Shown here: positions 3,361 to 64,000 of the stretch, piece by piece
Layout of the letters: each line of letters opens with the position of its first letter
Position numbering within the stretch: the first letter of the stretch is position 1
Source: Fusobacterium massiliense
GTDB lineage: Bacteria > Fusobacteriota > Fusobacteriia > Fusobacteriales > Fusobacteriaceae
Length of the DNA: 64,000 bases
Direction: 5' to 3'
Assembly (NCBI RefSeq): GCF_900095705.1
Contig: NZ_LT608327.1
Location: 806,001-870,000, forward strand
Notes under the pieces: model-generated
Told to the model about the DNA's origin: nothing
Database searches by the model: none
What the model saw: only the letters and a program-made list of their open reading frames with translations
Made by a program: the position numbers and the translations under genes

Positions 3361-3388
3361 TTCAAACTAATACAAATGTCAGAGATTA
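3361..3388 (+). repeat. Half copy of the AGTCTCT hairpin repeat
   Basis: TTCAAACTAATAC followed by AAATGTCAGAGATT matches only the right half of the repeat (consensus TTCGAACTAATACGG then ACGTCAGAGACT). There is no left arm upstream, so the hairpin cannot form. It appears to be a decayed remnant beside the intact copy at 3393. Confidence 0.75.
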
Positions 3389-3392
3389 TTTT

Positions 3393-3467
3393 AGTCTCTT
3401 GACAGCCGTATGACTCTTCCGAGCTCACCGAAATGCTCTCCAGAGTAATACGCGGACGTCAGAGACT
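3393..3467 (+). repeat. AGTCTCT hairpin repeat, copy 1 (variant middle stem)
   Basis: The copy begins AGTCTCTTGACAGCCG and ends GGACGTCAGAGACT. It is followed by the usual flank running to TTTCCTATA. The middle stem reads GACTCT on the left and AGAGTAA on the right, instead of GAGTTC and GAACTAA as in most copies, so pairing is retained with different bases. It shares this variant with the copy at 50087. It lies between two minus-strand genes, after the terminator of one and before the start of the next. Confidence 0.9.
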
Positions 3468-3510
3468 AAATTTCATTATTTAATTTTATACTTTCCTATA
3501 AAATAAAAAA

Positions 3511-3546
3511 AGTGTGAGAAAAAATAAAAAAATTCTCACACTTTTT
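3511..3546 (-). terminator. Rho-independent terminator after the outer-membrane protein gene
   Basis: The arms AGTGTGAGAA (3511-3520) and TTCTCACACT (3533-3542) pair perfectly, with an A/T loop and T-rich tracts on both sides, so the hairpin could work in both directions. It ends the minus-strand operon that starts with ctpA. Confidence 0.9.
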
Positions 3547-3563
3547 CTAATTTTATAAAAAAT

Positions 3564-4370
3564 TTAAAACTTTAATTCCACACCTAATTTATAAACTGGT
3601 TTTGTTTCTGAGTACATAAAATTTTGCATATCTCTTTGTGTATCTTTAAATTTAAATATATCATATCCTACTCCAGCTACAACATTAACTTCTTTATTTC
3701 CACTTCTGTATAAATTATAAGCTCCTGTCAAAGAAGTTTCTAAAGATGATTTTATACTATCATGTGGAATATGAGACATTGCATCTAATTTTACAGAAAA
3801 GTCATCATTAACTTTGTAAACAGCTTCTCCTCCAAGTCTTATCCCTCCTGCTCCAAATGCTCTCTCATCATTATTTATAGTTGTACTTCCTGTAGAAGAA
3901 AACTTATATGAAAATTGTAAAAGAGAAAATTCTGCTTTTGGAGTAATAGTAAATTTAGGGTTCACATTAAAATCATAAGAAAGTCCTAACCCATAAAAAG
4001 CATATAAATGTTTACTAGATATATGATCTCCTTTTCTAAGTTGAATATTGTGAGTTTTTAAATCTTCATTTAAAGTTGCACTTCCATTAAATGATTTATA
4101 TTTCATTCCATAATAAACTCCCCAATTATCCCATTTAGCACCTACAAATAATTCTGGATAATTAATATTTTTTATATTTAGTTCATCAAAAGTTGGTCTT
4201 CTTTCTGAAGTAGTATTGAACTGTCCTCCTTGTGGTATTTGTACAAAGCCATCAATTTTACCAAAATTATGAGTATATCTTACTGTGTAAGACTTTGGTA
4301 ATTCTGCTTTCATGGCTAAAGCTGATGTTGAAATTGCTACAAGAGATAAAACTGTCAAAATTTTTTTCAT
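3564..4370 (-). CDS. Outer-membrane beta-barrel protein
   Basis: This 268-residue protein starts with a clear signal peptide, MKKILTVLSLVAISTSALA. The mature part is built of alternating strands with aromatic-rich turns and ends in the terminal phenylalanine of ELKF, the usual signal for outer-membrane insertion. No catalytic motif is visible. It resembles the many small fusobacterial porin-like or OmpW/Omp-type barrels, but I cannot assign a named family. It is the last gene before the terminator at 3511, 28 bp after the small membrane-protein gene. Confidence 0.75.
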   Translation of the reverse strand: MKKILTVLSLVAISTSALAMKAELPKSYTVRYTHNFGKIDGFVQIPQGGQFNTTSERRPTFDELNIKNINYPELFVGAKWDNWGVYYGMKYKSFNGSATLNEDLKTHNIQLRKGDHISSKHLYAFYGLGLSYDFNVNPKFTITPKAEFSLLQFSYKFSSTGSTTINNDERAFGAGGIRLGGEAVYKVNDDFSVKLDAMSHIPHDSIKSSLETSLTGAYNLYRSGNKEVNVVAGVGYDIFKFKDTQRDMQNFMYSETKPVYKLGVELKF

Positions 4371-4398
4371 ATAGTTCCTCCTAATTTTTATAAAATAG

Positions 4399-4758
4399 TT
4401 ATTTTTTATTTTCCTCTATTTTTTGATCGATCTTTTTTATTTTTTTATCCAATTCATTTATTCTCATTTCAATAGAATTTAATATCCAAAATTGAAAATG
4501 CATTGATTTTTGTGCCTGTTGCAACATCCATATTATTTTAAAAGTCGCAATTAAAATTAAAATTAAGAGTGTTGTGGTTGGAGATAATCTTCTTAGAATT
4601 ATTCCTGTCACAAATATAACTAGTACAATACCTGCAAAAAGAGTTGTTACTAATTTATATTGTCCATTACTAGAACCTCCAATTTTCCCAATAATATCTC
4701 TCAGTTCTTCTTTTCTATTTAAAAATTCGTTTAAATCGTCCTTCAAATGATTTTCCAT
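4399..4758 (-). CDS. Small membrane protein with coiled-coil tail, unknown function
   Basis: This 119-residue protein has a charged helical start (about 1-28), two hydrophobic segments (about 37-56 and 62-80) and a C-terminal coiled coil rich in Lys, Glu and Ile (about 93-119). I do not recognise a family. The gene follows nadE by 6 bp and precedes the outer-membrane protein gene by 28 bp, so it is cotranscribed. A role as a small inner-membrane scaffold is possible but only a guess. Confidence 0.7.
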   Translation of the reverse strand: MENHLKDDLNEFLNRKEELRDIIGKIGGSSNGQYKLVTTLFAGIVLVIFVTGIILRRLSPTTTLLILILIATFKIIWMLQQAQKSMHFQFWILNSIEMRINELDKKIKKIDQKIEENKK

Positions 4759-4764
4759 AAATAC

Positions 4765-5541
4765 CTACCTTGTTATTTTAGCAATAAGAGGCATTTTTCT
4801 CTTATACTCACTTCTACTTATTCTTTTAGTAATATTTTCAATTAACCCTTTATCAAAACCTTCACTTATTATTTCTTCAACAGTTTTATTTTCTTCAATT
4901 AATCTAAATAATATTTTATCTGCCTCTAAATAAGTTATTCCCATTTCTTCTTCATCAGTTTGACCTTCCCACAAATCAGCACTAGGTTTTTTATCTATAA
5001 TTTCTTGTGGAACTTTTAAATATCTTGCTAAATTCCAAATATTAGTTTTATATAAATCCCCTATTGGATTTAAAGCACATGCAGAATCTCCAAATTGAGT
5101 GCTATATCCTAAGAAAATTTCTGTTTTGTTTGATGTTCCAACAACAAGAGCATTTTCTTTAGATGAATTATCAAATAAAATTGACATTCTTTCTCTAGCC
5201 ATTTTATTGCCTTTTCTAAGTGATGATGGATTTTCTTCATTTTTAAAATATGCATCTATCATATCTGTTATTTCAACTACTTTTGAGTTTATTCCTAAAT
5301 CTTTTACAACCAATTCAGCATGTAATAAGCTATTTTTATTTGAAGTTTTATAAGGCATCATTATAGCATAAACATTTTCTTTTCCTAAAGCGTCTCTTAA
5401 TAAATAAGCAACTAAAGCAGAATCTATACCTCCGGATAAACCTAGTACAGCTTTCTTAAACCCATTTTTCTTAAAATTATATCTTAAAAATTCCACTAAT
5501 TCTTCATGTACTTTTTTCAAATCTAAATCTAATTTATTCAT
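4765..5541 (-). CDS. nadE: NAD+ synthetase, ammonia-dependent
   Basis: NadE makes NAD from deamido-NAD, ATP and ammonia in the cytoplasm. The 258 residues match the short, ammonia-using form, since there is no N-terminal glutaminase domain. The PP-loop is SGGIDS (36-41). The segments VGTSNKTEIFLGYSTQFGD and KKPSADLWEGQTDEEEMG are the conserved substrate-binding parts of the family. It lies 8 bp after the YwqK-like gene and 6 bp before a small membrane-protein gene. Confidence 0.95.
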   Translation of the reverse strand: MNKLDLDLKKVHEELVEFLRYNFKKNGFKKAVLGLSGGIDSALVAYLLRDALGKENVYAIMMPYKTSNKNSLLHAELVVKDLGINSKVVEITDMIDAYFKNEENPSSLRKGNKMARERMSILFDNSSKENALVVGTSNKTEIFLGYSTQFGDSACALNPIGDLYKTNIWNLARYLKVPQEIIDKKPSADLWEGQTDEEEMGITYLEADKILFRLIEENKTVEEIISEGFDKGLIENITKRISRSEYKRKMPLIAKITR

Positions 5542-5549
5542 TCTTTCTC

Positions 5550-6614: not shown

Positions 6615-6625
6615 AGTTGGTCTCC

Positions 6626-9588: not shown

Positions 9589-9664
9589 AGTCTCTTGACA
9601 GCCGTATGAGTTATACGAGCTCAATAAAGACAGGCTCTTCAAACTAATACGAACATCAGAGACT
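9589..9664 (+). repeat. AGTCTCT hairpin repeat, copy 2 (overlaps the end of tlyA)
   Basis: The copy begins AGTCTCTTGACAGCCG, ends CATCAGAGACT, and has some drift in the right half (AATACGAAC). The right flank continues into tlyA: the stop codon of tlyA (9663-9665) is part of the repeat's GAGACTAA, and the last dozen or so codons come from the conserved flank. It separates tlyA from ctpA on the minus strand. Confidence 0.9.
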
Positions 9665-10493
9665 AATTTTCATTATTTATTTTTATACTTTTTTGTAAAT
9701 TAAAAATAATATTTTTTATCTCATCTAGTCCAATCTCTTTTTTATCTCTAGAAAATTTAGCTAAATATTCTGTATTTCCTTTAGCTCCTTTTATAGGAGA
9801 AGTAGTGAAATTGTTTAGAAACAAATTCATCCTCTTTATATGTTCAACAATTTCTATTATAATTTTTAAATGAACATCTAAATCTCTTACTATCCCCTTT
9901 TCTATCTCTTCTTTATCAGCTTCAAACTGAGGTTTTATCAAAAATATTGCCTCTGTATTTTCATTCATCAATTCTACTATTTTATCTATAACTTTCTTAA
10001 TAGATATAAACGAAATATCCATTACAATTATATCTATACTCTTATCTAAATCACTCTTTTCTAAGTCATTTATATGTTTGTTTTCTATACTTTTTATTTT
10101 TAAATTATTTCTTAATTTCCAATCTAACTGATTGGTTCCCACATCTACAGCATATACAAAACTAGCTCCATTTTGAAGTGAACAATCCGTAAAACCTCCA
10201 GTAGATGCACCAATATCTAAGACTACTTTATTTTTAAAATCCATTTTAAATTCTTTTATAGCTTTTTCTAATTTTAAGCCCCCTCGACTTACATAGGGAA
10301 TATCTCTTTCCTTTATTCTTATCTCTCTTATCTTATCAATCGAAATAATTTCTCCAGGTTTATCAATTTTCCTTTCATTGACAATTACATTTCCTACCAT
10401 TATTTGCCTTTTAGCAAATTCTATATTTTCAAAATAGTCTTTAAGGCATAAATATTCATCTAGTCTCATTTTCTTCTTCAAAGATTTTTCCAT
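9663..10493 (-). CDS. tlyA: TlyA family rRNA 2'-O-methyltransferase
   Basis: TlyA enzymes methylate cytidine riboses in 16S and/or 23S rRNA. An S4 RNA-binding domain (RLDEYL... to about residue 65) is followed by an FtsJ-like methyltransferase domain. That domain has the SAM-binding stretch VVLDIGASTGGFTD near residue 90, a VDVGTNQLDWKLR segment and IKPQFEA. The start is uncertain: M1 or the methionine nine residues in (10469), which begins MRLDEYL as in other family members. It overlaps the HD-domain gene. The C-terminal residues KSIKINNEN and the stop are encoded by the flank of the hairpin repeat, so the natural end of the protein has been replaced. Confidence 0.9.
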   Translation of the reverse strand: MEKSLKKKMRLDEYLCLKDYFENIEFAKRQIMVGNVIVNERKIDKPGEIISIDKIREIRIKERDIPYVSRGGLKLEKAIKEFKMDFKNKVVLDIGASTGGFTDCSLQNGASFVYAVDVGTNQLDWKLRNNLKIKSIENKHINDLEKSDLDKSIDIIVMDISFISIKKVIDKIVELMNENTEAIFLIKPQFEADKEEIEKGIVRDLDVHLKIIIEIVEHIKRMNLFLNNFTTSPIKGAKGNTEYLAKFSRDKKEIGLDEIKNIIFNLQKSIKINNEN

Positions 10494-13418: not shown

Positions 13419-15347
13419 TTATATTTCTAATAACATAGGTAATATAATTGGATTTCTTTTTAATTTTTCATAGAAAAATCTCGATAATAAATCTCTCATA
13501 TTTCCTTTTAAATCAGCCCAATCTCTACCTTCGTAAGTTTCTGAATAACTAATTTTTGATTTCAACAAATCTAAAGCCTCTTTTATTGTATCCTCTGAAT
13601 CTTTATAATAAACAAAACCTTTAGTTGAAATTTCAGGCCCTGCTAAAATTTTACCAGTTTTCTTATCTACAGAATAAGCTACAATCACAATTCCATCTTC
13701 AGATAGTTGTTGTCTATCTTTTATAACTTTACTTCCTATATCTCCTACTCCAAGTCCATCAACTAAAACTTCTCCTGAAGTTACTTTTCCATTTACTTTA
13801 GCATATTCTTTTGTTACTTCTACCTTATCTCCGTTTTGAGTTAAAAGTATTTTATCCTTGGGAACTCCTGTTTCTATTGCTGATTTCATATGTGCTTTAA
13901 GCATTCTATATTCTCCATGAACGGGCATAAAGTTCTTAGGATTTATTAAATTAAGCATAAGTTTTTGTTCCTCTTTACTTCCATGACCAGACACATGTAT
14001 TCCAGCAACTTTCTTAAAAACTAAGTCAACATCATATCTTAATATATTATTAATATTAGTTGAAACAGCTTTTTCATTTCCAGGTATTGGTGTTGAAGAT
14101 ATAATAACTGTATCCCCTTCTCTCAATGTTATGTGTTTATGCATAGTCTTTGCTATCCTTGAAAGAGCTGCCATTGGTTCCCCTTGAGTTCCTGTACATA
14201 ATATAACTACTTCATCATCATTATATTTTTCTACTTCCGATATAGGAATCACTAAATTTTTAGGTATATTTAAGCAACCAACAGTAGGTGCTATTTCAAA
14301 AACTTTTATTAAACTTCTTCCATCAATAGCTATCTTTCTCTTGAATTGAGTTGCTATATCTACTATTTGTTGTATTCTATGCACATGTGATGCAAAAACA
14401 GCTATAATAATTCTTCCACTAGCTTTTTGAAATTCTTGTCTAAACGCATCTCCGACACTTCTTTCTGATGGAGTAAATCCTTCAACCTCAGAGTTTGTTG
14501 AGTCAGATAGCATTAAATCTACTCCTTCTTCCCCTAATTCAGAAAGTCTTACAAAGTCAACTTTTTCTCCATCAACCGGAGTTAAATCTATCTTAAAATC
14601 TCCTGTAAAGAATACATGACCTGCTGGTGTTTTTATTGATAAACAATAAGAATCTGCTATTGAATGTGTTACTTTTACAAATTCAACAGTAAAATATTTC
14701 CCAGCATTAACTTTGCTTCTTGAAGATACTTCTATCATCTTAGGAACTTTTTTCTTTTTACCAAAATTTTCAAATTTTGATTTTATAAGTGCATTTGTTA
14801 ATTTACCACTATATATAGGAGTATCCTTTTCTATTTTTTCATATAAATAAGGTATTCCTCCAATATGATCTTCATGTCCATGAGTAACAAATAATCCTTT
14901 TATCTTTTCTTTATTGTTTTCTAAAAAAGAATAATCTGGTATGACTAAGTCTATCCCTGGTAAATTTTCATCAGGAAAAATTGCTCCTGCATCTATAATT
15001 ATTATCTCATCTTTATACTGAACGATGCTACAATTTTTACCTACTTCTTCAAGACCACCCAAAGGAATAACATACATTTTATCTAAATCTTTCTTACTCT
15101 TTTTAGTTTTATTTTTCGTAGATATTTCTTTATTCTCTTTTTTTATTATTTCAAGCTCAGAAACTTCTTCCAAAACCTCTACGTTTTTATTTTCTTTATT
15201 TTTTTTGACAGATTTTCTTTTTTTATTATTTTTTTTATTTTCTTTTATATCCAATACATCATTTTTAATATTTTTTATTTTGTCTTCTATACTAATTTTA
15301 TTCTCCTTCATTTCCAATTGTCGTTTCTCTTGACTCGTTTTCTTCAT
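13419..15347 (-). CDS. rnj: Ribonuclease J with lysine-rich N-terminal extension
   Basis: RNase J is a metallo-beta-lactamase/beta-CASP nuclease with endo- and 5'-exonuclease activity in mRNA decay and rRNA maturation. The catalytic signature is HGHEDH (156-161). SDSTNSEVEGF, the GTQGEPMAAL segment and the VHGEYRML motif are all family-typical. The conserved core starts near MYVIPLGGLEEVG (91). The first 90 residues are an unusual Lys/Glu/Asn-rich extension, probably disordered or helical. The first methionine is supported by GGAG upstream. The gene overlaps the end of mrdA by 50 bp. Confidence 0.95.
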   Translation of the reverse strand: MKKTSQEKRQLEMKENKISIEDKIKNIKNDVLDIKENKKNNKKRKSVKKNKENKNVEVLEEVSELEIIKKENKEISTKNKTKKSKKDLDKMYVIPLGGLEEVGKNCSIVQYKDEIIIIDAGAIFPDENLPGIDLVIPDYSFLENNKEKIKGLFVTHGHEDHIGGIPYLYEKIEKDTPIYSGKLTNALIKSKFENFGKKKKVPKMIEVSSRSKVNAGKYFTVEFVKVTHSIADSYCLSIKTPAGHVFFTGDFKIDLTPVDGEKVDFVRLSELGEEGVDLMLSDSTNSEVEGFTPSERSVGDAFRQEFQKASGRIIIAVFASHVHRIQQIVDIATQFKRKIAIDGRSLIKVFEIAPTVGCLNIPKNLVIPISEVEKYNDDEVVILCTGTQGEPMAALSRIAKTMHKHITLREGDTVIISSTPIPGNEKAVSTNINNILRYDVDLVFKKVAGIHVSGHGSKEEQKLMLNLINPKNFMPVHGEYRMLKAHMKSAIETGVPKDKILLTQNGDKVEVTKEYAKVNGKVTSGEVLVDGLGVGDIGSKVIKDRQQLSEDGIVIVAYSVDKKTGKILAGPEISTKGFVYYKDSEDTIKEALDLLKSKISYSETYEGRDWADLKGNMRDLLSRFFYEKLKRNPIILPMLLEI

Positions 15348-23983: not shown

Positions 23984-23988
23984 ATAAA

Positions 23989-24063
23989 GTCTCTGACGTC
24001 CGTATTAGTTCGAAGAGCCTGTGTTTATTGAGCTCGTAGAACTCATACGGCTGTCAAGAGACT
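23989..24063 (-). repeat. AGTCTCT hairpin repeat, copy 3 (core inverted relative to flanks)
   Basis: On the plus strand the core reads AGTCTCTGACGTCCG and ends CTGTCAAGAGACT, the reverse of copy 1. The flanks are in the forward arrangement, with TATAAATAA on the left and AATTTTTATATTAAA on the right. It sits between the convergent ends of the cysteine-synthase-like gene and yeiH, where I see no other terminator. Confidence 0.92.
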
Positions 24064-25360: not shown

Positions 25361-25436
25361 AGTCTCTTGACAGCCTTATGAGTTCTACGAGCTCAATGAA
25401 CACAGGCTCTTCGAACTAATTCGGACGTCAGAGACT
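25361..25436 (+). repeat. AGTCTCT hairpin repeat, copy 4
   Basis: Forward core from AGTCTCTTGACAGCC to ACGTCAGAGACT with both flanks well kept: left TTTCCTATATAAATAA and right AATTTTGCTATTTAA followed by TATACTTTCCTG. It lies between the terminator of the PP-loop enzyme operon and the yeiH start (both minus). TTTCCT-type motifs bracket the unit on both sides in the same direction. Confidence 0.93.
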
Positions 25437-25480
25437 AATTTTGCTATTTAATTTTTATACTTTCCTGTAGATTAAAAAAA

Positions 25481-25526
25481 GCCAATTGCAGATTTTAAAA
25501 AAATCTTTTGCAATTGGCGTTTTTTA
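25481..25526 (-). terminator. Terminator after the PP-loop enzyme gene
   Basis: The arms GCCAATTGCA (25481-25490) and TGCAATTGGC (25509-25518) pair perfectly, an inner GATTTT/AAAATC extends the stem, and T/A tracts lie on both sides. It ends the traT-pgcA-hemW-yggS-sepF operon. Confidence 0.93.
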
Positions 25527-31313: not shown

Positions 31314-31387
31314 AGTCTCTTGATAGCCGTATGAGTTTACGAACTAATAAACATAGGCTCTTCGAACTAATACAAACATCAGAGACT
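31314..31387 (+). repeat. AGTCTCT hairpin repeat, copy 5 (degenerate)
   Basis: Forward core beginning AGTCTCTTGATAGCCG and ending CATCAGAGACT, with the middle drifted (GTTTACGAACTAAT in place of TTCTACGAGCTC). The right flank is well kept (ACTATTTAATTTTAT and TTTCCTATAG). It lies upstream of traT on the minus strand. Confidence 0.88.
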
Positions 31388-31525
31388 AACTTTTACTATT
31401 TAATTTTATAGTTTCCTATAGAATAAAAAAAATTTATTTTTATTCTATCATATTTTTTTTATTTTTTAAATAAATTTATACTTTTTACTTTATAATTTAT
31501 TTTTTTATTTTCCTAACTTTTAAGA

Positions 31526-37320: not shown

Positions 37321-37396
37321 AGTCTCTGACGTCCGTATTAGTTCGAAGAGCCTGTGTTTATTGAGCTCGCAGAACTTATACGGCTGTCAAGAGACT
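37321..37396 (-). repeat. AGTCTCT hairpin repeat, copy 6
   Basis: On the plus strand the core reads AGTCTCTGACGTCCG and ends CTGTCAAGAGACT followed by six Ts. The left flank is AATAAAAATT, consistent with a fully reversed unit. It lies between the converging ends of the rlmD-like gene and pxpC, with no other hairpin there, so it probably terminates both. Confidence 0.92.
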
Positions 37397-39208: not shown

Positions 39209-39284
39209 AGTATCTTGACAACTATATAAGTTCTACAAACTGGGTAAACATAGACTCTTTGAACTCACACAGACATCAGAGATT
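39209..39284 (+). repeat. AGTCTCT hairpin repeat, copy 7 (degenerate)
   Basis: Forward core AGTATCTTGACAACTAT to CATCAGAGATT, with many changes in both arms. The flanks remain recognisable (TATAAATAC on the left, CACTATTTAATC on the right). It splits the 5-oxoprolinase operon between the transporter gene and pxpB, both on the minus strand. Confidence 0.82.
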
Positions 39285-41846: not shown

Positions 41847-41922
41847 AGTCTCTTGACAGCCGTATGAGTTCTACGAGCTCAATGAACATAGGCTCTTCGA
41901 ACTAATACGGACGTCAGAGACT
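41847..41922 (+). repeat. AGTCTCT hairpin repeat, copy 8
   Basis: Forward core AGTCTCTTGACAGCCG to ACGTCAGAGACT, with the right flank ACTTTTATTATTTAA and TATACTTTCCTATAG well kept. It lies between the tRNA terminator and the end of the autotransporter gene, where no other terminator for the latter is evident. Confidence 0.93.
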
Positions 41923-41972
41923 AACTTTTATTATTTAATTTTATACTTTCCTATAGAATTAAAAGACAAAAA

Positions 41973-44900
41973 TTAAAGTGTATATCTCATTCCTAAATTA
42001 ATTTGCCATTTTTGTTTAATTCTATGTTTTGATGACTTTTGAATTTCTAAATATATCTGTCTTCCTTTTTCCTTATTAATATTAGTTAAGCCAAGTCCAT
42101 ATGTAAACCAATGATCTTTATTTCTAACTTCTTCCATTCCTGACTCGTTAAAATGATGTCTAACTTTTCCCAAAAATTCTTTTTCATACATTAATTTTAT
42201 ATAAGGGTTAATACTTTCGTTAGCAAAACTATCCAATCCTGCTCTAAATCCAATTCTTCCTATTAAACTATCTAAGTCTTCTGTTCTAACTTGTAGACCA
42301 TTAGATAAATTTAAGTTATACCCATTTGTAAATTGATATTTCAATTGAGCTTCAGGTTGAATATAATATTCTTTTTTCTCACTTTGATTTAAGAAAATTC
42401 TCTTTCCAGCTTCAACAGACAATAAATACGATTTTATACGAGCTTTATTTGAACTAACTTTTTGTTTAGAATAATTTTCTATATCATATTGACCTTTATA
42501 TCTAGTCGCTTTAGCTACAAAATCATAATACACATTATTTTCTTTATTTAACCAAGTTGAATATAAGCCAAGTTCTTCTCCTGCAATTTTACTCTTACCA
42601 GGATAGCTTCCAAATTTAGCAGAAGATTCTATATGTCCAAATAATAAGCCATTATAATTTATCCATTTTTCTCTTGCTTTTACCCAATCATATCCAACTT
42701 CCATTCCCCAATAACGATGTCTATATTTACCTGTTCTTAAATTCTCTCCACTATATTTCCCATTTATATGTTTTATCCAAACATTATTATTTTTTATAAT
42801 ATCTTTGTCAAAATGGACTTCTCCTAATCTTTGAACTAGAGTTTCTATAGAAACTAAGTTTAATTGATAAATTAAATCGTTAAAAATCAGACTTGTTTCG
42901 GCACCAGGTGTTAATTTCCCTGGCTTATCATCAATAATTTTAGGAGATTCCCCTGGCTTTATTTTTTCTTCTTCTTTATATGGATATAAATACCAGTTAT
43001 TTTTATTCTTATCTCCAGTATCTACTACTTTTGAATCAGTTGCTCTTCCTAAAGCATAAAGATATGCTCCTCTTTCAATAAGTGCTCCAGGATTTATAGG
43101 TTTACTATTATCTTCTGGTATATCAACTCTATCATTCGGATTTTTTAATTTGAATGTAGCATTATTATCCACTTCATTTCCCAAACTTTCTACAAGTTTT
43201 AAAACTTCTGTCCCACTAGATTTTGCTCCAGCCATATTTTCAAACTCTATATAGTGATTTCCTTTACTACTATTTTTTATAGACAATAAGTCTGTTTCTC
43301 CAGTCTGAACATTTCCCTGCATTTTAAATATTCCACCATTACCTTTTAAATTATCAACAGACAATGTTACAGGACTTTCTGCATCTAAAAAATCTATTGT
43401 ACCTTCAGAAGAAATATCCAATGTATTTATTTTTGAGTCATCTGTCATTAACCAATGACTAGAATTAGCTAATTTTGTGTCTATAATCCCAGTAGAATTA
43501 TTATTAGCAAGTCCTATTAAATGAGAATTTTCATTTAATAAATTCAAGCTAACTTTTCCTTTATTTGATGTAAAAATATTTCCTAATATATTTACATCAT
43601 CTTTACCTGCAACAGTTATTTCAGCATTTTTTCCACTAGAGACTAATGCAGGATCCGTTGGAGCTCCAACAATATTTAATTTCTTATTAAATGTTATTGT
43701 ACTTTTTGAGTCATCTGTTACATTTTCTGGAGCTACATTGTAAACTGCTATTTTTTTATTTCCGTTACCATTCATAGTTATAGAGACATCTCCATTGAAA
43801 GTAGTCTCAGTTTTATTAATGGATTCTGTATGAATTTGAGAAATTCCATAACCACTAGCTTCAGTATTAATTCTTATATTTACATTAGAATCTTTATCTG
43901 ATGTAATAGTAGTTCCCTTACCTATATTAGCTCTATCTTTTTCTATTCTAATTCCATAAGCATTAGATAAAGCCTTTGAGTAAATATTATTATTTCCTTT
44001 AAAATTTATAGAATTTTCTCCTTTTCCATCACTTTCGCTATTACTTTGTAAATTAATTCCATAAGAGTATTGCCCCTCTGTTTCAATAGAAGTATTTTCT
44101 AATTCAAAATTATTTTTACCAAGGTTTTCATCAGCTATATCAATATTTCTTGCAACATAATTAGAATTAGTAGTTATATTAGTATTTTTTAACTTGATAT
44201 TATTTTCTCCATCTGTAGAAGTAGCTTTAATCCCATACACCCAAGCACTAGTTCCTTCATTACTTGTCTCTATTTTATTTTTTTCTCCATTAAATTCTAA
44301 AGTGTTTTTACCATTATCTCTTGCATCAAGAAATATTCCATAAATACTTCCACTCTTATTTAAAGTAATTAAATTCATATTTGAATTAAATAAAAACTTA
44401 CTTTCTCCATTTGTAGTAGTTTTCGAATAAAAATTAAGACTATTAGCTTTATCCTCAGAAGTATTTACTATTTTTGAAGTAAAAGTTTTTCCAGCTTTAT
44501 TTGTAACTTTTACTCCACCACCAAATTGTGTATTACTTAAAAACCACAATTTTGTTGTTGTATTTCCAGTCATCACACTATCCACATTTCCATTAAAAGT
44601 AACTGTTGACCCTCCATTTTCTTTGTCAATAGTATCTTTAGTGGAAACTGTTTTAAAACGATTTTCTCCATTATTTTCCAATCGAAATGCAGTTATTTGT
44701 AAATTATCTGTAGTGGATTTTGTTAGCATGGACAAATCATCATTAAATGTTAAATGAGTCTCTCCTCCAGTATCAGATTGATTAAAAAATACATTAACTC
44801 TTTTTTCATAATCTTTCAAACCACTTGGATTAACAGTTTGAATTTCATTTTTCATACTTACTTTTTTTAAAAAATTTATAGTTGAAACAGGTTTTGTAAC

Positions 44901-45425
44901 ATTACCTGAAGCACCTTCCCCAACAATCTTTACTACATTATAGATAAGATAATAATTCCCTTTATATTTTTTATGTGTCTTAATATTAAAATCTGCATTC
45001 GTATCAAAATTTAATATTGTTTCTGATCTATCAACCATGTTAGAATTAGAGTTATACACATGTACTCCAACTTGCCAATCAATAGGTTTATCATCATCAA
45101 CATGTATAAGATGTAATGTTCCATCAGATGATATTGTTGTTTCTGTAATAGGTTTTACCAACTCTCCACCATGTATATTTTTGCTCTCAATAATATTATC
45201 GACTGTATTTGCATTTGGAATATTTTTACTTTTTGTTCCAATTACATCTCCGTCTAGGTAAGAATAATTAAATTTTACTTTATTTTCACTTTTTTCAATA
45301 TTACTACTCTTATTTGTTTCAATTGTTTTCCAATCATTCTTAGTAATTGTATTTTCATTATACTCTTCTGCTTTTGTTACTAAAGAAACAAGTAAAAAAA
45401 ATAATATAATTTTTTTATTTTTCAC
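41973..45425 (-). CDS. Type V autotransporter adhesin-like protein
   Basis: The 1150-residue protein begins with a signal peptide (KKIILFFLLVSLVTKAEE). A long passenger (about 20-860) is rich in Asn, Thr, Ser and Lys, with short repeats such as GENNIKLKNTNIT and KNNFELENTSIE, which suggest a beta-helix. The C-terminal autotransporter barrel (about 890-1150) ends in a family-type strand, WQINLGMRYTL. It should pass through its own barrel and display the passenger at the cell surface. The start codon is GTG, with GGAGG six bases upstream. Fusobacteria have many such proteins, and the ligand or activity cannot be read from sequence. Confidence 0.9.
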   Translation of the reverse strand: MKNKKIILFFLLVSLVTKAEEYNENTITKNDWKTIETNKSSNIEKSENKVKFNYSYLDGDVIGTKSKNIPNANTVDNIIESKNIHGGELVKPITETTISSDGTLHLIHVDDDKPIDWQVGVHVYNSNSNMVDRSETILNFDTNADFNIKTHKKYKGNYYLIYNVVKIVGEGASGNVTKPVSTINFLKKVSMKNEIQTVNPSGLKDYEKRVNVFFNQSDTGGETHLTFNDDLSMLTKSTTDNLQITAFRLENNGENRFKTVSTKDTIDKENGGSTVTFNGNVDSVMTGNTTTKLWFLSNTQFGGGVKVTNKAGKTFTSKIVNTSEDKANSLNFYSKTTTNGESKFLFNSNMNLITLNKSGSIYGIFLDARDNGKNTLEFNGEKNKIETSNEGTSAWVYGIKATSTDGENNIKLKNTNITTNSNYVARNIDIADENLGKNNFELENTSIETEGQYSYGINLQSNSESDGKGENSINFKGNNNIYSKALSNAYGIRIEKDRANIGKGTTITSDKDSNVNIRINTEASGYGISQIHTESINKTETTFNGDVSITMNGNGNKKIAVYNVAPENVTDDSKSTITFNKKLNIVGAPTDPALVSSGKNAEITVAGKDDVNILGNIFTSNKGKVSLNLLNENSHLIGLANNNSTGIIDTKLANSSHWLMTDDSKINTLDISSEGTIDFLDAESPVTLSVDNLKGNGGIFKMQGNVQTGETDLLSIKNSSKGNHYIEFENMAGAKSSGTEVLKLVESLGNEVDNNATFKLKNPNDRVDIPEDNSKPINPGALIERGAYLYALGRATDSKVVDTGDKNKNNWYLYPYKEEEKIKPGESPKIIDDKPGKLTPGAETSLIFNDLIYQLNLVSIETLVQRLGEVHFDKDIIKNNNVWIKHINGKYSGENLRTGKYRHRYWGMEVGYDWVKAREKWINYNGLLFGHIESSAKFGSYPGKSKIAGEELGLYSTWLNKENNVYYDFVAKATRYKGQYDIENYSKQKVSSNKARIKSYLLSVEAGKRIFLNQSEKKEYYIQPEAQLKYQFTNGYNLNLSNGLQVRTEDLDSLIGRIGFRAGLDSFANESINPYIKLMYEKEFLGKVRHHFNESGMEEVRNKDHWFTYGLGLTNINKEKGRQIYLEIQKSSKHRIKQKWQINLGMRYTL

Positions 45426-45600: not shown

Positions 45601-45676
45601 AGTCTCTGACGTCCGTATTAGTTCGAAGAACCTGTGTTTATTGAGCTCGTAGAACTCATACGACTGTCAAGAGACT
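45601..45676 (-). repeat. AGTCTCT hairpin repeat, copy 9 (core inverted relative to flanks)
   Basis: The core on the plus strand reads AGTCTCTGACGTCCG to CTGTCAAGAGACT, whereas the flanks are forward: TTTTCCATATAAATAA before it and AATTTTTGCTATTTAA after it. It lies between rplQ and the autotransporter promoter, both minus strand. Confidence 0.93.
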
Positions 45677-45719
45677 AATTTTTGCTATTTAAACTTTTTC
45701 TTTCTTTATAAATAAAAAA

Positions 45720-50086: not shown

Positions 50087-50159
50087 AGTCTCCTGACAGC
50101 CGTATGACTCTTCCGAGCTCACCGAAATACTCTCCAGAGTAATACGGACGTCGGAGACT
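50087..50159 (+). repeat. AGTCTCT hairpin repeat, copy 10 (variant middle stem, compensated end)
   Basis: Forward core beginning AGTCTCCTGACAG and ending GTCGGAGACT: the left T-to-C change at position seven is matched by A-to-G on the right. The middle stem has the GACTCT/AGAGTAA variant shared with copy 1. Right flank TATACTTTCCTATAA is kept. It lies between adk (end) and map (start), both minus, where these genes are usually contiguous. Confidence 0.93.
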
Positions 50160-50199
50160 AATTTTCATATTAAATTATACTTTCCTATAAAGTTAAAAA

Positions 50200-50231
50200 G
50201 GTTGTCACAATAAAAACACCTTGCAACAACC
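50200..50231 (-). terminator. Terminator of adk
   Basis: GGTTGT (50200-50205) pairs with ACAACC (50226-50231), and after a two-base mismatch CAA pairs with TTG. On the minus strand a T-rich tract follows. Confidence 0.8.
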
Positions 50232-50869: not shown

Positions 50870-51023
50870 TTTACTATACCTCCATTTTATTATTTTATAA
50901 TTTCATATATATTATACATCAGTTTTTACAAAAACAAAATTTTATTTCATTTTTTTACTTTTTATTTTTTCAACTTCTTCAGTCATAATCTATTCCTCTA
51001 AATTTTATATGATTTATATAAAA

Positions 51024-51098
51024 AGTCTTGACGTCCGTATTAGTTCGAAGAGCCTGTGTTCATTGAGCTCGTAGAACTCATACGGCTGTCAAGAGACT
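51024..51098 (-). repeat. AGTCTCT hairpin repeat, copy 11 (core inverted relative to flanks)
   Basis: The core on the plus strand reads AGTCTTGACGTCCG, with two bases missing in the left end, and closes CTGTCAAGAGACT. The right flank AATTTTTATATTAAA followed by TATACTTTCCTATAG is the forward flank, so core and flank disagree in orientation as in copies 3 and 9. Confidence 0.9.
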
Positions 51099-51145
51099 AA
51101 TTTTTATATTAAATTTATACTTTCCTATAGAATAAAAAAGGACAA

Positions 51146-51851: not shown

Positions 51852-51900
51852 AATCCCTTGACAGCCGTAGCTTTTCGAACTAATACGGACGTCAGAGACT
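51852..51900 (+). repeat. AGTCTCT hairpin repeat, copy 12 (internal deletion)
   Basis: AATCCCTTGACAGCCGTA joins directly to CTTTTCGAACTAATACGG and ACGTCAGAGACT, so about 27 bases of the centre are gone, including the GAGCTC region. The end bases no longer pair well. The outer inverted parts remain. Confidence 0.88.
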
Positions 51901-51941
51901 AATTTTTGTTATTTATTTAATTTTCACATAGAATAAAAATA

Positions 51942-51993
51942 AGTCCCTAATATCTGTATATGAAATTTATTCTAATACAGATATCTAGGGACT
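51942..51993 (-). terminator. Long bidirectional hairpin terminator
   Basis: AGTCCCTA then ATATCTGTAT on the left pair with ATACAGATAT and TAGGGACT on the right (one bulged C), a stem of about 18 bp. On the minus strand it is followed by TTATTTTTATT, so it fits the terminator of the era operon. It can also serve the converging parvulin-like gene. Confidence 0.88.
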
Positions 51994-60061: not shown

Positions 60062-60137
60062 AGTTTCTGACATCCGCATTAGTTCGAAGAAACTATGTTC
60101 ATTCAGCTCGTAGAACTCATACAGTTGTCAAGAAACT
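60062..60137 (-). repeat. AGTCTCT hairpin repeat, copy 13 (compensated end)
   Basis: On the plus strand: AGTTTCTGACATCCG to GTTGTCAAGAAACT. The left C-to-T and right G-to-A changes keep the end pairing (AGTTTCT/AGAAACT). Right flank TTATTTAT fits a reversed unit. It lies between the MATE gene and the flavin reductase gene, both plus. Confidence 0.92.
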
Positions 60138-60808: not shown

Positions 60809-60814
60809 TATAAT
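60809..60814 (+). promoter_or_regulatory. Extended -10 of the DHH phosphoesterase gene
   Basis: TATAAT preceded by TGA makes an extended -10 (TGnTATAAT). The -35 region 17 bases upstream (TAGGTT) is poor. It lies 59 bases before the start codon. Confidence 0.55.
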
Positions 60815-60873
60815 TAACAGACTAATTTTAAATTTATTAATATTACTAATTTTGTAATTTAGAGAGGAGAAAA

Positions 60874-61941
60874 ATGGCTGATATTTTATACGATACTAGG
60901 TCAAAAAATCTAAATGCTCCTAAAGTTGTTATTCTAACTCATGGAGATGCAGATGGGTTAGTGTCAGCTATGGTTGTAAAAACTTTCGAAGAATTGGAGG
61001 ATAAAAATAAATCATTCCTTATAATGAGTAGTATGGATGTTACACTTGAACAGACAGATAAAATTTTTGATTATATCTGCAAGTACACATCTTTAGGTTC
61101 TAAGGATAGAGTTTATATTTTAGATAGACCTATTCCTAGTATGGATTGGTTAAAAATGAGATATTTAGCATATACCAATATAATTAACATAGATCATCAC
61201 TTAACTAATAATCCTACTCTGTATAAAGATGAGTGTTGTTGTGACGACATTTATTTTTTCTGGGATGATAAAGTCAGTGCTGCTTTTTTGACTTTGAAAT
61301 GGTTTGAACCTTTAGTTGAAAAAGGTGAAAACTATAAAAAAATGTATGAAAAACTATATCCTTTAGTTGAAGCAACTTCTTGTTGGGATATTTTTTCTTG
61401 GAAAACTCTTGGAACTAGCCAAGAAGATATTTTACTTAAAAAAAGAGCTTTAGCAATTAATTCTGCTGAAAAAATATTAGGAACTGAAGCTTTTTATAAG
61501 GCTATAAATAAAAATTTAAACTCTTCTACATATATTAAAGATTTATTTAATTATTTTTTCTGCTTAGATGAAGCATATGAAATAAAGATAAAGAACTATT
61601 TTGATTTTGCTAAAAGAACTATCTATGAGTTAAATCATAAAAGTTATAAAATAGGTGTTGCCTATGGTATTGATGGAGATTACCAATCAATTATTTCTGA
61701 TAAAATATTTCAAGATAAAAAATCAAACTACGATATACTAGCTTTTTTAAATCCTTACGGGACTGTTTCTTTTAGAAGTAAAAATGAAGCAGATGTTAGC
61801 GAAATTGCTAAAAAATTAGGAGAAGTTGTTGGTTTTTCTGGTGGTGGTCACAAAAATGCTGCCGGTTGTAGAATTTGTGATAAAGAAGAAATTAAAAATA
61901 AGATTTTAGAAATTTTTGAAAATTCTTTGGAAAAAATTTAA
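60874..61941 (+). CDS. DHH family phosphoesterase
   Basis: The 355-residue protein has the DHH-superfamily order: motif I THGDADGLVSA (about 22-32), an acidic motif II in VYILDRPI, motif III NIDHHLT near 106, and a DHHA1-type C-terminal domain with VVGFSGGGHKNAAGCRI near 325. Such enzymes hydrolyse nanoRNAs, 3'-phosphoadenosine phosphate or cyclic dinucleotides. The sequence does not decide between them. GGAG is well placed before the ATG. Confidence 0.85.
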   Translation: MADILYDTRSKNLNAPKVVILTHGDADGLVSAMVVKTFEELEDKNKSFLIMSSMDVTLEQTDKIFDYICKYTSLGSKDRVYILDRPIPSMDWLKMRYLAYTNIINIDHHLTNNPTLYKDECCCDDIYFFWDDKVSAAFLTLKWFEPLVEKGENYKKMYEKLYPLVEATSCWDIFSWKTLGTSQEDILLKKRALAINSAEKILGTEAFYKAINKNLNSSTYIKDLFNYFFCLDEAYEIKIKNYFDFAKRTIYELNHKSYKIGVAYGIDGDYQSIISDKIFQDKKSNYDILAFLNPYGTVSFRSKNEADVSEIAKKLGEVVGFSGGGHKNAAGCRICDKEEIKNKILEIFENSLEKI

Positions 61942-61949
61942 ATTTGTTG

Positions 61950-62020
61950 ATTTAAAAATAGTTCGTTATAGCCAGATTTTTAATCTAAAATCTGGAAAAA
62001 TAACTCACTTATTTTTAAAT
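61950..62020 (+). other. Nested inverted repeats upstream of truA
   Basis: Three stems are nested: ATTTAAAAATA (61950-61960) with TATTTTTAAAT (62010-62020), GTTAT (61965-61969) with ATAAC (62000-62004), and CCAGATTTT (61972-61980) with AAAATCTGG (61987-61995). The hairpin is not followed by a T-run on the plus strand, so it is not an ordinary terminator. It directly precedes a repeat copy. Confidence 0.7.
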
Positions 62021-62031
62021 TATCCAAAAGA

Positions 62032-62106
62032 TAGCCCCGATGTCCGTATTAGTTCGAAGAGCCTGTGTTTATTGAGCTCGTAGAACTCATACGGCTATCA
62101 GGGGCT
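62032..62106 (-). repeat. AGTCTCT hairpin repeat, copy 14 (double compensated end)
   Basis: On the plus strand: AGCCCCGATGTCCG to GGCTATCAGGGGCT. The ends AGCCCC/GGGGCT replace AGTCTC/GAGACT, with two compensating pairs. The middle is the consensus reversed form. The A/T flanks are poorly kept. It lies between the DHH gene and truA. Confidence 0.92.
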
Positions 62107-62154
62107 ATAATAAGGTTTATAAATTAGAATTTATGTAAAAAGGATATATGAAAA

Positions 62155-62889
62155 ATGAGAAAGAATATTAAAATAGAATACAGATATGATGGAAGTAATT
62201 ATTTTGGACTTCAAAGACAACCTAATCAAATAACTGTTCAAGGAGAAATAGAAAAAGTTTTAAAAATAATTACAAAAGAAGATATAAATTTAATTTCCGC
62301 TGGTAGAACTGATAGAGCTGTTCATGCTAATCATCAAGTTTCAAACTTCTTCACAACTTCCACAGTTCCTACAGAAAAATATAAATATATATTAAATAGA
62401 TTACTTCCTAAAGATATTGATATTTTAAAAGTGGAAGAAGTTGATTTAGACTTTAATGCCCGTTTTAATGCTAAATCAAGAGAGTATATTTATCTGCTTT
62501 CAACAGTAAAAAATCCATTTGAAAGTAGGTATTATAAATTTGTAAATACAAACATAAATACAAAAGAACTAGAAAAAATTTTTCAAAGTTTTGTAGGAAT
62601 CCATGATTTCAAGAACTTTAGATTAAACGATTGTTCTAGTAAGGTTACAATCAGAGAAATCTATAAAATCGAAGTTAGCTCTTTTGCAGAAAATAAAATA
62701 AAAATTTTAATAAAAGGTAGTTCCTTTTTGAAATCTCAGGTAAGAATTATGGTTGGTATTGCTTTAGAAATCTATAATAAAAATTTACCTTACAATCATA
62801 TAGAACTACTTCTTCAAGATTTTTCTAAGGAATATAAAAAATATTTAGCAGAACCTGAAGGTTTATATTTAAACAAAATAGAGTACTAG
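62155..62889 (+). CDS. truA: tRNA pseudouridine(38-40) synthase
   Basis: TruA makes pseudouridine at positions 38-40 of tRNA. The catalytic aspartate is D53 in [36 protein letters not shown] near the start, [16 protein letters not shown] and [14 protein letters not shown] are family segments. At 244 residues it is of normal length. The ribosome-binding site AAGGA is about ten bases upstream. Confidence 0.96.
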
Positions 62890-62905
62890 AAAGGAAAGAA
62901 AAACT

Positions 62906-63376
62906 ATGGAATTGGTTCATATAACAAATCCTGATTTTGAAACGATGTCTAAAATTATAAAAATTGAAAAAGAGGCTTTTGAAGGTTCAGGAAATGTTGA
63001 CCTATGGATTATAAAAGCTCTTATTAGATACGGTTTTGTTTTTGTTGTAAAAAAAGATGATGAAATTGTATCTATTGCTGAATACATGCAAGTTTTCAAT
63101 AAAAAATCTCTATTTCTTTATGGTATTTCTACCTTGAAAAAATATAGAAATCAAGGCTTTGCAAGTTTTCTACTTGATGAAACTGAAAAAATTTTAAAAA
63201 GCCTAGGTTTCGAAGAAATAGAATTAACTGTTGACCCTCAAAATATAATAGCTATTAACTTATATAAACATCATGGGTATACTATGGAAAAATTTTTAGA
63301 AGATGAATATGGAAAAAATGTACATAGATATATGATGAAAAAAGTTATAAATCACTTGACACAAATAAAAAAATAA
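62906..63376 (+). CDS. GNAT family N-acetyltransferase (RimI-like)
   Basis: This 156-residue protein is of the GNAT fold. The acetyl-CoA loop is in GISTLKKYRNQGFASFLLDETEKIL, and EIELTVDPQNIIAINLYKHHGYTMEKFLEDEYG is the RimI-like C-terminal pattern. It could acetylate ribosomal protein S18 or another amino group, but the substrate is unknown. It follows truA by 16 bp. The promoter of the Fur-family gene overlaps its end. Confidence 0.85.
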   Translation: MELVHITNPDFETMSKIIKIEKEAFEGSGNVDLWIIKALIRYGFVFVVKKDDEIVSIAEYMQVFNKKSLFLYGISTLKKYRNQGFASFLLDETEKILKSLGFEEIELTVDPQNIIAINLYKHHGYTMEKFLEDEYGKNVHRYMMKKVINHLTQIKK

Positions 63377-63384
63377 GATATTAT
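63356..63384 (+). promoter_or_regulatory. Promoter of the Fur-family regulator
   Basis: TTGACA (63356-63361), 17-base spacer, TATTAT (63379-63384). The -35 and most of the spacer lie inside the end of the acetyltransferase gene. Confidence 0.85.
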
Positions 63385-63398
63385 ATATTAGGTAAATC

Positions 63399-63413
63399 TA
63401 ACTAATTTAGTTA
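63399..63413 (+). promoter_or_regulatory. Palindromic operator candidate for the Fur-family regulator
   Basis: TAACTAATTTAGTTA is an inverted repeat with seven-base arms around one central base. It sits about 8 to 22 bases after the expected transcription start and just before the GGGGG ribosome-binding site. It resembles the A/T-rich boxes of Fur and PerR proteins, so autoregulation is likely. Confidence 0.65.
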
Positions 63414-63437
63414 AGTATTATAGAAAGGGGGATACAT

Positions 63438-63866
63438 ATGGAATTACACTTACATAAGTCTGAAATAGGTCATTATTTAAAAAAACATGATATAAAACCA
63501 TCTTATCAAAGAATGAAAATATTTCAATATTTTTTAGATAATCATAACCACCCAACTGTAGATACGATATATAAGGCTCTTTGTTCAGAGATACCCACTT
63601 TATCAAAAACAACCGTTTATAACACTTTAAATTTATTTATTGAAAAAAAATTGGTATATGTTTTAGTTATTGAAGAAAATGAAACAAGATATGATTTATT
63701 AACTGATACTCACGGTCACTTCAAATGTGAATGTTGTGGGGCATTATTTGATGTTGAGCTAAATATTGACTATAATGCTATAAAAGAATTAACAGGTTGT
63801 GAAATAGATGAAAAACATTTTTATTTCAAAGGAATATGTAAAAGTTGTAGAGAAAAAAATAATTAA
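63438..63866 (+). CDS. Fur/PerR family transcriptional regulator
   Basis: This 142-residue metal-dependent repressor has a winged-helix part (KPSYQRMKIFQYFLDNHNHPTVDTIYKALCSEIPTLSKTTVYNTLNLFIEKKLV). The dimerisation and metal domain has HGHFKCECCGALFDVE and a second CxxC in GICKSCREKNN, which together form the structural zinc site. Regulatory metal ligands include H in THGHF and D in YDLL. Whether it senses iron, zinc, manganese or peroxide is not clear. The CxxC pairs and the NETRYDLL loop lean towards PerR. A palindrome in its leader suggests self-control. Confidence 0.88.
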   Translation: MELHLHKSEIGHYLKKHDIKPSYQRMKIFQYFLDNHNHPTVDTIYKALCSEIPTLSKTTVYNTLNLFIEKKLVYVLVIEENETRYDLLTDTHGHFKCECCGALFDVELNIDYNAIKELTGCEIDEKHFYFKGICKSCREKNN

Positions 63867-63880
63867 CAACAAATATAAAT

Positions 63881-63914
63881 AAAAAGCTAGCACAAAAAAG
63901 TGGTAGCTTTTTTT
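63881..63914 (+). terminator. Terminator of the Fur-family gene
   Basis: AAAAAGCTA then GCAC pair with GTGG and TAGCTTTTT around an A-loop, followed by a long T-run. Confidence 0.92.
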
Positions 63915-63951
63915 ATTTATAAGGAAAGTATAAATTTAAATAGCAAAAATT

Positions 63952-64000
63952 AGTCTCTGACGTCCGTATTAGTTCGAAGAGCCTGTGTTCATTGAGCTCG
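63952..64000 (-). repeat. AGTCTCT hairpin repeat, copy 15 (cut by the window end)
   Basis: AGTCTCTGACGTCCG onwards to GAGCTCG at the window edge, preceded by the full reversed flank (AAGGAAAGTATAAAT and TTAAATAGCAAAAATT). Only the left half is visible. Confidence 0.9.

What the first reader, a model, noticed from the sequence alone, without database searches (positions are those of the whole stretch)
3361..64000. Dispersed intergenic hairpin repeat with compensatory base changes
Fourteen complete or internally deleted copies and one half copy of a unit of about 75 bp lie between genes, roughly one per 4-5 kb; the last is cut by the window end. Ends are AGTCTCT and AGAGACT, and almost the whole unit pairs into one long imperfect hairpin with a loop of about 12 bases. 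Three copies have changed ends that still pair: AGTCTCC/GGAGACT at 50087, AGTTTCT/AGAAACT at 60062 and AGCCCC/GGGGCT at 62032. Such covariation suggests the folded form is maintained, as RNA or as cruciform DNA. No protein-coding or tRNA feature explains it, and I do not know a named family for it.
Basis: partly seen in the sequence, partly recalled or inferred. Interest (0 to 1): 0.8.

Follow-up and report, generated by a model that had tools for sequence, protein, structure and literature searches.

The report
Miniature IS91-type hairpin transposons
A tiny DNA parasite, made of a hairpin plus the right-hand end of a rolling-circle transposon, has spread to several hundred places between the genes of one fusobacterium, and its hairpin part seems to be swapped and flipped independently of the rest.

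Summary
The repeat is real: 15 copies plus a half copy in the window, 113 copies reaching both ends in 464 kb of the same genome (roughly 440-520 genome-wide by extrapolation), none in 97 other Fusobacteriota genomes. The whole is about 125 bp: TAAATAA-like left edge, 76-nt hairpin, ~42-nt arm ending in TTTATACTTTCCTATAGAATAAAA or variants. That is the right end of IS91-family (HUH/Y2, rolling-circle) insertion sequences: all 4 right ends readable here and those of G037. It often abuts an A-tract plus hairpin (44 of 63 fetched sites in relatives; 32 of 87 here). Best reading: a non-autonomous IS91-derived mini-element whose hairpin stands where the IS has its own left-end hairpin. No transcriptional orientation bias makes an RNA role unlikely. 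Compensatory changes exceed chance only moderately. Unexpected: the core is inverted relative to the arm in 15 of 97 copies, and identical cores (16 pairs among eight copies) have right ends 16% apart, so the core seems exchanged separately. Transposition is inferred, not shown.

The parts
3348..3392 (+). half copy (3' half of a core), directly left of the next copy
3393..3467 (+). hairpin core; B-type interior with A-type ends (mosaic); arm to the right, about 3468-3510
9589..9664 (+). hairpin core, A-type; arm about 9665-9706
23988..24063 (-). hairpin core INVERTED relative to its arm (arm to the right on the + strand, poorly conserved beyond its first 12 nt or so)
25361..25436 (+). hairpin core; arm about 25437-25480
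25481..25518 (+). hairpin matching the left-end hairpin of the IS91-like elements, abutting the right end of the copy at 25361
31314..31387 (+). hairpin core, 74 nt; arm about 31388-31431
37321..37396 (-). hairpin core; arm poorly conserved
39209..39284 (+). hairpin core, diverged
41847..41922 (+). hairpin core, near consensus; arm about 41923-41966
45601..45676 (-). hairpin core INVERTED relative to its arm (arm about 45677-45718)
50087..50159 (+). hairpin core, B-type, ends AGTCTCC/GGAGACT; arm about 50160-50200
51022..51098 (-). hairpin core with shortened outer stem, INVERTED relative to its arm (arm about 51099-51140)
51852..51900 (+). internally deleted core; arm about 51901-51942
51942..51993 (+). 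short, possibly related hairpin AGTCCCT...AGGGACT (C-type) abutting the previous copy
60062..60137 (-). hairpin core with compensated ends AGTTTCT/AGAAACT; arm to its left on the + strand
62032..62107 (-). hairpin core with TAGCCCC/GGGGCTA ends, inside a different 163-167 bp repeat (61975-62141) without the usual arm
63952..64000 (-). hairpin core cut by the window end; arm about 63910-63951

Best explanation
The repeat is a non-autonomous miniature element that moved with the machinery of IS91-family (HUH/Y2, rolling-circle) insertion sequences of the same genome. SHOWN: its arm ends in the sequence that forms the right end of the IS91-like copies of this genome and of G037. SHOWN: in relatives most examined right ends, and here a minority well above controls, abut an A-tract followed by a hairpin (terminators, or the left hairpin of another copy). 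SHOWN: the IS copies begin on their left with an A-tract plus a hairpin of their own, the place that the 76-nt hairpin takes in the mini-element. INFERRED: the IS91-like transposase acts in trans. It would nick at the right end, displace one strand leftwards, stop at the hairpin, and join the product to another A-tract plus hairpin; this would explain head-to-tail dimers and stacking beside terminators. INFERRED: the hairpin is kept because it serves as a single-stranded stop signal (and as a target), so stems change with compensation although the DNA need not be transcribed. SHOWN but unexplained: the core is often inverted relative to its arm and is far more uniform than the arms are, probably through conversion or template switching between hairpin arms during single-stranded stages.
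For: Arm 24-mer within 3 mismatches: 202 sites in the own genome. 23 of 97 other Fusobacteriota genomes have a match, 15 of them 2 to 31 matches; the 8 with a single match are no better than the reversed control, which gives single hits in 9 of 98 genomes. In G037 it ends 1442-bp units, some in tandem, encoding a 404-aa protein with Y2_Tnp and Zn_Tnp_IS91 domains, IS91 family transposase by NCBIfam (217.9 bits, cut-off 125). The own genome has 5 Y2_Tnp places. All 4 right ends that could be read carry the motif about 130-140 bp behind the gene: three within 2 mismatches, one (L150) a variant found by the arm HMM at E 1.9e-4. All 4 readable left ends carry an A-tract plus a GC(C/T)AATTGCAGA hairpin. 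Right flanks: stems at 44 of 63 sites fetched from relatives against 1 of 63 upstream controls; 32 of 87 own sites against 6 of 87 on the left and 2.6% of shuffles. Mini-elements with unrelated hairpins and the same right end in G052, G054, G058 and G062. Gaps between conserved neighbours are longer where the own genome has the element: median +133 bp (10 comparisons at 9 gaps) against -18 bp (92 comparisons), p=5e-4. Published passages: the right end of IS91 is essential, transposition ends at the left repeat or look-alikes, IS801 yields 229-679 nt miniatures (PMC3189936); a hairpin acts as transposition terminator in a Helitron (PMC4778049).
Against: Only 32-45 of 87 own right flanks have a detectable hairpin, depending on the criterion, so the target rule is not general or has decayed. 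I saw no sequence similarity between the core and the IS left end. No transposition was observed and no clean empty site was found: the best (L049 versus G016) keeps the target hairpin without the core, but the DNA beside it might be a decayed right end. The 4 own transposase copies that cover the site carry an in-frame TGA, so a working enzyme is not certain. Core and arm distances are only weakly linked (Spearman 0.33), which is not what simple movement of the whole unit predicts. Right flanks are not the GAAC-type targets described for IS801. 3 of 10 element-bearing gap comparisons are shorter than, or within 3 nt of, the relative's gap.
Confidence: 0.72

Rival explanations
1. The 76-nt hairpin is itself the mobile unit (REPIN-like, moved by a Y1 or other hairpin-recognising transposase) and was inserted, in either orientation, at the left side of IS91-type right ends.
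For: Core inverted relative to the arm in 15 of 97 copies and in 12 of 71 by HMM placement of the arm. Identical cores (16 pairs among eight copies) have right ends 16% apart, 9 of the 16 pairs in opposite orientation. The core also sits in an unrelated flank in the three TAGCCCC copies. REPINs are hairpins of similar size with common compensatory changes (PMC3116915 passages).
Against: Arms without a core are rare: 20 of 141 hits at E up to 10 lay more than 15 nt from a core, most of them weak, and 4 of 75 strong hits lack one. In the 97 classified copies the junctions are alike, TAAATAA-type|core|AATTTT-type. The only Y1 transposase trace is 38 of 121 positions in a 47-aa frame.
Confidence: 0.15
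2. An RNA element (processing signal, terminator or small RNA) kept by selection in transcripts.
For: Stable predicted fold (-33 kcal/mol) and compensated stem changes; a good share of copies lie next to terminator-like hairpins.
Against: No clear orientation bias in co-directional gaps: arm 29 antisense and 20 sense, 9 undetermined; core 31 and 27. Copies also lie in 29 convergent and 19 divergent gaps. Not found in 97 other Fusobacteriota genomes including two congeners (60 others). No Rfam match at gathering score.
Confidence: 0.06
3. A DDE-type MITE whose terminal inverted repeats are AGTCTCT/AGAGACT, the arm being a target preference.
For: 7-bp inverted ends; dispersed on both strands.
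Against: No longer repeat with these ends was seen in the sampled 464 kb (not an exhaustive search). The conserved unit extends beyond the ends on one side with fixed polarity. The arm ends like the IS91-like elements.
Confidence: 0.04
4. Compensatory changes and inversions are both by-products of template switching in a DNA palindrome; no selection on structure is needed. (Compatible with the best explanation of how the element spread.)
For: Inversions in place; mosaic cores such as window 3393 (A ends, B interior) and cores that read as arm-to-arm conversions, such as L041:562 and L044:6114; number of distinct compensated pair types not above chance.
Against: Unpaired places in the stem (single T bulge, 2x2, 1x1 and 3x3 internal loops) are the same in A and B types, which repeated arm copying should have erased.
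Confidence: 0.3

Closest known systems
Miniature one-ended derivatives of IS801 (IS91 family), Pseudomonas syringae (PMC3189936, passages seen)
   Same: Keep the right end of an IS91-family element, lack a full transposase gene, and are attributed to one-ended rolling-circle transposition.
   Different: Those are 229-679 nt fragments of the IS itself, and the paper reports no obvious palindrome at their left ends. Here the left part is a 76-nt hairpin not seen in the IS, the unit is about 125 bp and copies number in the hundreds.
REPINs / REP sequences with RAYT (Y1) transposases (PMC3116915, passages seen)
   Same: Extragenic hairpins of similar length with common compensatory changes, repeated through one genome, sometimes clustered.
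   Different: Only a trace of a Y1 transposase here; one-sided AT arm with an IS91-type right end; core inverts relative to that arm.
Helitrons, hairpin as transposition terminator (PMC4778049, passages seen)
   Same: HUH-type rolling-circle movement with a terminal hairpin as stop signal is the model adopted here.
   Different: Eukaryotic; a 19-bp palindrome near the 3' end. Here a long hairpin lies opposite an IS91-type right end, often next to bacterial terminators.

Membership tests
IS91 family (non-autonomous member) | partner transposase of the HUH/Y2 type in the genome | tested here: met
   PF04986 at 5 places; NF033538 IS91 family transposase 227.2 bits against cut-off 125, read with TGA as Trp; NPH(I/V)HAL and KYLG(R/K)Y visible in the alignment (that these are the HUH and two-Tyr motifs is recalled)
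IS91 family (non-autonomous member) | shares the right end with the autonomous elements | tested here: met
   motif at 4 of 4 readable own IS right ends (3 within 2 mismatches, 1 variant by HMM) and at the arm end
IS91 family (non-autonomous member) | left end resembles the target | tested here: inconclusive
   A-rich stretch plus hairpin at 4 of 4 readable IS left ends and beside 44 of 63 right ends in relatives, but only 32 of 87 in the own genome
IS91 family (non-autonomous member) | tetranucleotide target such as GAAC/CAAG | tested here: not met
   right flanks are mostly A-rich; the tetranucleotides are described for IS801 in PMC3189936 and may not define the whole family
IS91 family (non-autonomous member) | no target duplication | tested here: inconclusive
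   A-rich sequence on both sides makes a duplication undecidable; no clean empty site
IS91 family (non-autonomous member) | rolling-circle transposition | not testable with these tools
   needs an assay; tandem dimers agree with it
REPIN / RAYT | Y1 (RAYT) transposase in the genome | tested here: not met
   only a 38-of-121-position trace in a 47-aa frame
REPIN / RAYT | hairpin of two inverted conserved ends in extragenic space | tested here: met
Known RNA family (Rfam 15) | match at or above the gathering score | tested here: not met
DDE-type MITE | target duplication and autonomous element with the same terminal repeats | tested here: inconclusive
   duplication undecidable; no longer repeat with these ends noticed among repeats of 200 bp or more in 464 kb, not searched exhaustively

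The most novel reading that the evidence does not exclude
Rolling-circle IS91-type transposons of Fusobacteriota use 'A-tract plus any hairpin' both as left end and as target, so that terminator-like hairpins can become transposon ends. In this species one hairpin has become an exchangeable cassette: it is copied into, and inverted within, existing mini-elements independently of the right end that moves them, giving hundreds of two-part elements with separate evolutionary histories.
Probability: 0.35. Interest if true: 0.78.

Novelty: new variant of a known kind. Interest (0 to 1): 0.6.

Why it matters
Elements related to IS91 mobilise resistance genes in other bacteria (PMC3189936 passage). 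How such elements end and where they land seems, to my knowledge, loosely defined. A genome with hundreds of miniature derivatives, all near the minimal size, is a natural mutagenesis experiment. It separates the right end from the hairpin and suggests that hairpins serve as end and target. It also shows that compensatory changes in an intergenic hairpin need not mean RNA.

Tried and rejected
RNA function: judged unlikely for lack of orientation bias. Rfam: nothing for the element at gathering score, weak hits only (best E 0.068 at 20.8 bits against a gathering score of 249). Y1/REP-type transposase: only a trace. The idea that the arm pre-existed as an empty target: not supported because arms without cores are rare, though right ends without this core exist in relatives and a few in the own genome. 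The TAGCCCC pair in L042 as a composite transposon: not pursued; the ORFs between did not look like transposases by eye (no family search). A TnpB-type origin of the right end: the G015 neighbours tested are housekeeping genes and the G037 units encode IS91-type transposases. Relatives of the core: no exact pattern match in genome contigs or viral contigs, no BLAST match in phages or plasmids; these collections may leave out the own genome. Clean empty sites: none. Papers: 10 searches of the held open-access library listed nothing that I recognised as this element, as IS91-derived MITEs in Fusobacterium, or as IS91-type targeting of terminators. Most subscription journals are not held, so this is no proof of absence. 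Papers seen: passages of PMC3189936, PMC4778049 and PMC3116915; all others only as search listings.

Rows dropped: 135 hits at E up to 1 were cut to 113 that reach both ends at E below 1e-4. Of these 16 had ambiguous flank polarity and were left out of the 97. 87 of 97 had a locatable arm end. 35 young copies were chosen by core similarity, which makes core distances small by construction; 30 of them had an ungapped right end, and ungapped counting inflates right-end distances where there are small indels. The covariation test used 99 A-type copies and left out 14 B-type ones. The 63 right-end sites of relatives come from loci picked from capped lists, not from all matches.
Full report
Where it is. 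The window is C6:806001-870000 of an unnamed 1.81-Mb genome in six contigs. Its nearest named relatives by one protein are MAGs called Fusobacterium sp. at 57-71% identity (the own record may be left out there), and a Fusobacteriales ribosomal leader lies in the window. I do not know the species.

The observation. One 76-nt copy used as a query finds 15 copies in the window; a half copy lies at 3348-3392. In 464 kb (window plus twenty 20-kb stretches) nhmmer gives 135 non-overlapping hits at E up to 1, of which 113 reach both ends with E below 1e-4. That is one per 3.4-4.1 kb, or roughly 440-520 in the genome by extrapolation. Independently, a 29-nt piece of the core occurs 295 times genome-wide with up to 3 mismatches and in none of the other 97 Fusobacteriota genomes searched. 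A sequence search of 61 genomes of the family, own included, agrees. About 390 kb of the two congeners show no dispersed repeat family by the criterion used (low-complexity filter on).

The true unit. In the 97 copies with clear polarity a short left edge is conserved (TAAATAA: 78-94% per position for the last seven bases). On the other side lie about 42 nt ending in TTTATACTTTCCTATAGAATAAAA; in the 58 copies that could be anchored there, conservation stops just after it. The arm is nearly always with a core: 121 of 141 hits lie within 15 nt of one. Relative to this arm the core is in the usual orientation in 82, inverted in 15 and unclear in 16 of 113 copies. Placement by strong HMM hits of the arm gives 59 usual, 12 inverted and 4 without core of 75.

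What the arm is. The final 24-mer, within 3 mismatches, occurs 202 times in the own genome and in 23 of 97 other Fusobacteriota genomes. Fifteen of these have 2-31 matches. The eight with one match are no better than the reversed control, which gives one hit in each of 9 of 98 genomes. In G037 it closes 1442-bp units, some in tandem, encoding a 404-aa protein with Y2_Tnp and Zn_Tnp_IS91 domains, an IS91 family transposase by NCBIfam. The own genome has five Y2_Tnp places. The four readable right ends (L150, L153, L156, L212) carry the motif about 130-140 bp behind the gene, three within 2 mismatches and L150 as a variant (arm HMM E 1.9e-4). The four readable left ends (L150, L153, L156, L158) show an A-tract and the hairpin GC(C/T)AATTGCAGA...GCAATTGGC. 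L158 and L212 are halves at contig ends and may be one copy.

Where it lands. In relatives the right end is followed by a stem in 44 of 63 distinct fetched sites, against 1 of 63 upstream control segments and 3.5% of shuffles. Many look like terminators and some are the left hairpin of another copy. In the own genome 32 of 87 right flanks have such a stem against 6 of 87 left flanks and 2.6% of shuffles; at a fold energy of -8 or lower the counts are 35 against 8, while 16% of random intergenic segments reach it. More than half of the own sites therefore show no hairpin. Several right flanks are the core of a neighbouring copy, giving head-to-tail dimers, and dimers recur at 77-85% identity. 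Between conserved gene neighbours, gaps with the element differ from the congener's by a median of +133 bp (10 comparisons at 9 gaps; 3 of them shorter or within 3 nt), gaps without by -18 bp (92 comparisons; p=5e-4). One site (L049 versus G016) keeps the same A-tract and hairpin without the core, but its flank could be a decayed right end.

Parallel cases. Sites in G052, G054 and G058 (L140, L147, L165-L167, L175, L176, with variants elsewhere) carry the same kind of right end about 50 nt behind an A-tract and the hairpin GCAACGT(G/C)ACGTTGC. Sites in G062 (L190, L195, L203, L207) carry it behind a long hairpin bounded by AATAAGCTACGC and GCGTAGCTTATT or close variants. I see no sequence similarity between these hairpins and the one here, so the architecture seems to have arisen more than once (inference).

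No transcript logic. In co-directional gaps the arm is antisense 29 and sense 20 times (9 undetermined), the core 31 and 27; a further 29 copies are in convergent and 19 in divergent gaps, 6 at stretch edges and 1 inside a predicted ORF start (genes are long ORFs, not curated).

Covariation. 93% of stem cells pair. Compensated cells are 42 against a permutation mean of 26.1 (maximum 37 of 500); without one pair variant 27 against 17.0 (maximum 25). Distinct compensated types are 13 against 10.5 and not significant. The A and B consensus stems differ at four of 25 shared pairs, all four compensated, with the same bulge and internal mismatches. I read this as moderate support for a kept hairpin, at DNA level.

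Decoupled core. Young cores (at most 4 of 76 differences, so similar by choice) differ by 4.8% pairwise, while their right ends differ by 16% and same-length spacers by 23% (139 pairs) in ungapped comparison. Sixteen pairs, among eight copies, have identical cores yet right ends 16% apart and same-length spacers 13% apart, nine of the pairs in opposite orientation. Small indels inflate the right-end figure. Gapped distances agree: 4.6% against 32%. Against full decoupling, core and arm distances are weakly correlated over all pairs (Spearman 0.33). Inverted cores are 9 of 35 young and 6 of 62 other copies. Mosaic cores, such as window 3393 with A-type ends and B-type interior, fit exchange. 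Movement of the whole unit alone does not predict this. Conversion between copies, template switching within the hairpin, independent movement of the core, or strong constraint on the core in many source lineages could. I cannot separate these.

Conclusion. Membership as a non-autonomous IS91-type element rests on the shared right end and the partner transposase. How it works (hairpin as stop signal and target) is by analogy with IS91/IS801 one-ended transposition (PMC3189936, passages) and the Helitron hairpin (PMC4778049, passages), and is untested.

Noticed in passing
L153:1501-2709 (+), L150, L156, L158; L135 (G037): IS91-like transposase genes carry an in-frame TGA where relatives have Trp: the same site in the 4 own copies that cover it, another Trp site in a G037 type. 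dN/dS between two own copies is 0.16 before and 0.20 after the TGA, as if it were read through.
   Followed up: partly
window 51942-51993; L048:3531-3582; L031:10297-10361: A shorter hairpin type (AATCCCT...AGGGATT and AGTCCCT...AGGGACT) that may be an internally deleted relative of the core with compensated stems.
   Followed up: partly
window 61975-62141; L042:11886-12052 and 14152-14314: Core with TAGCCCC/GGGGCTA ends inside a different 163-167 bp repeat at 98% identity in three places.
   Followed up: partly
window 25481-25518: A hairpin matching the IS91-like left end, without the IS, abutting the mini-element at 25361.
   Followed up: no
L140, L147, L165-L167, L175, L176 (G052, G054, G058); L190, L195, L203, L207 (G062): Mini-elements with other hairpins and the same kind of right end in other Fusobacteriota genera.
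   Followed up: partly
window 41973-45425 (-): 1150-aa protein with a Pertactin domain, no match in either congener genome.
   Followed up: no
L043:10729-12630: 830-bp duplication (88%) with a mini-element just behind each half, the cores in opposite orientation and the arms scored with the same polarity, one of the arms poorly conserved; the elements may be separate insertions.
   Followed up: partly
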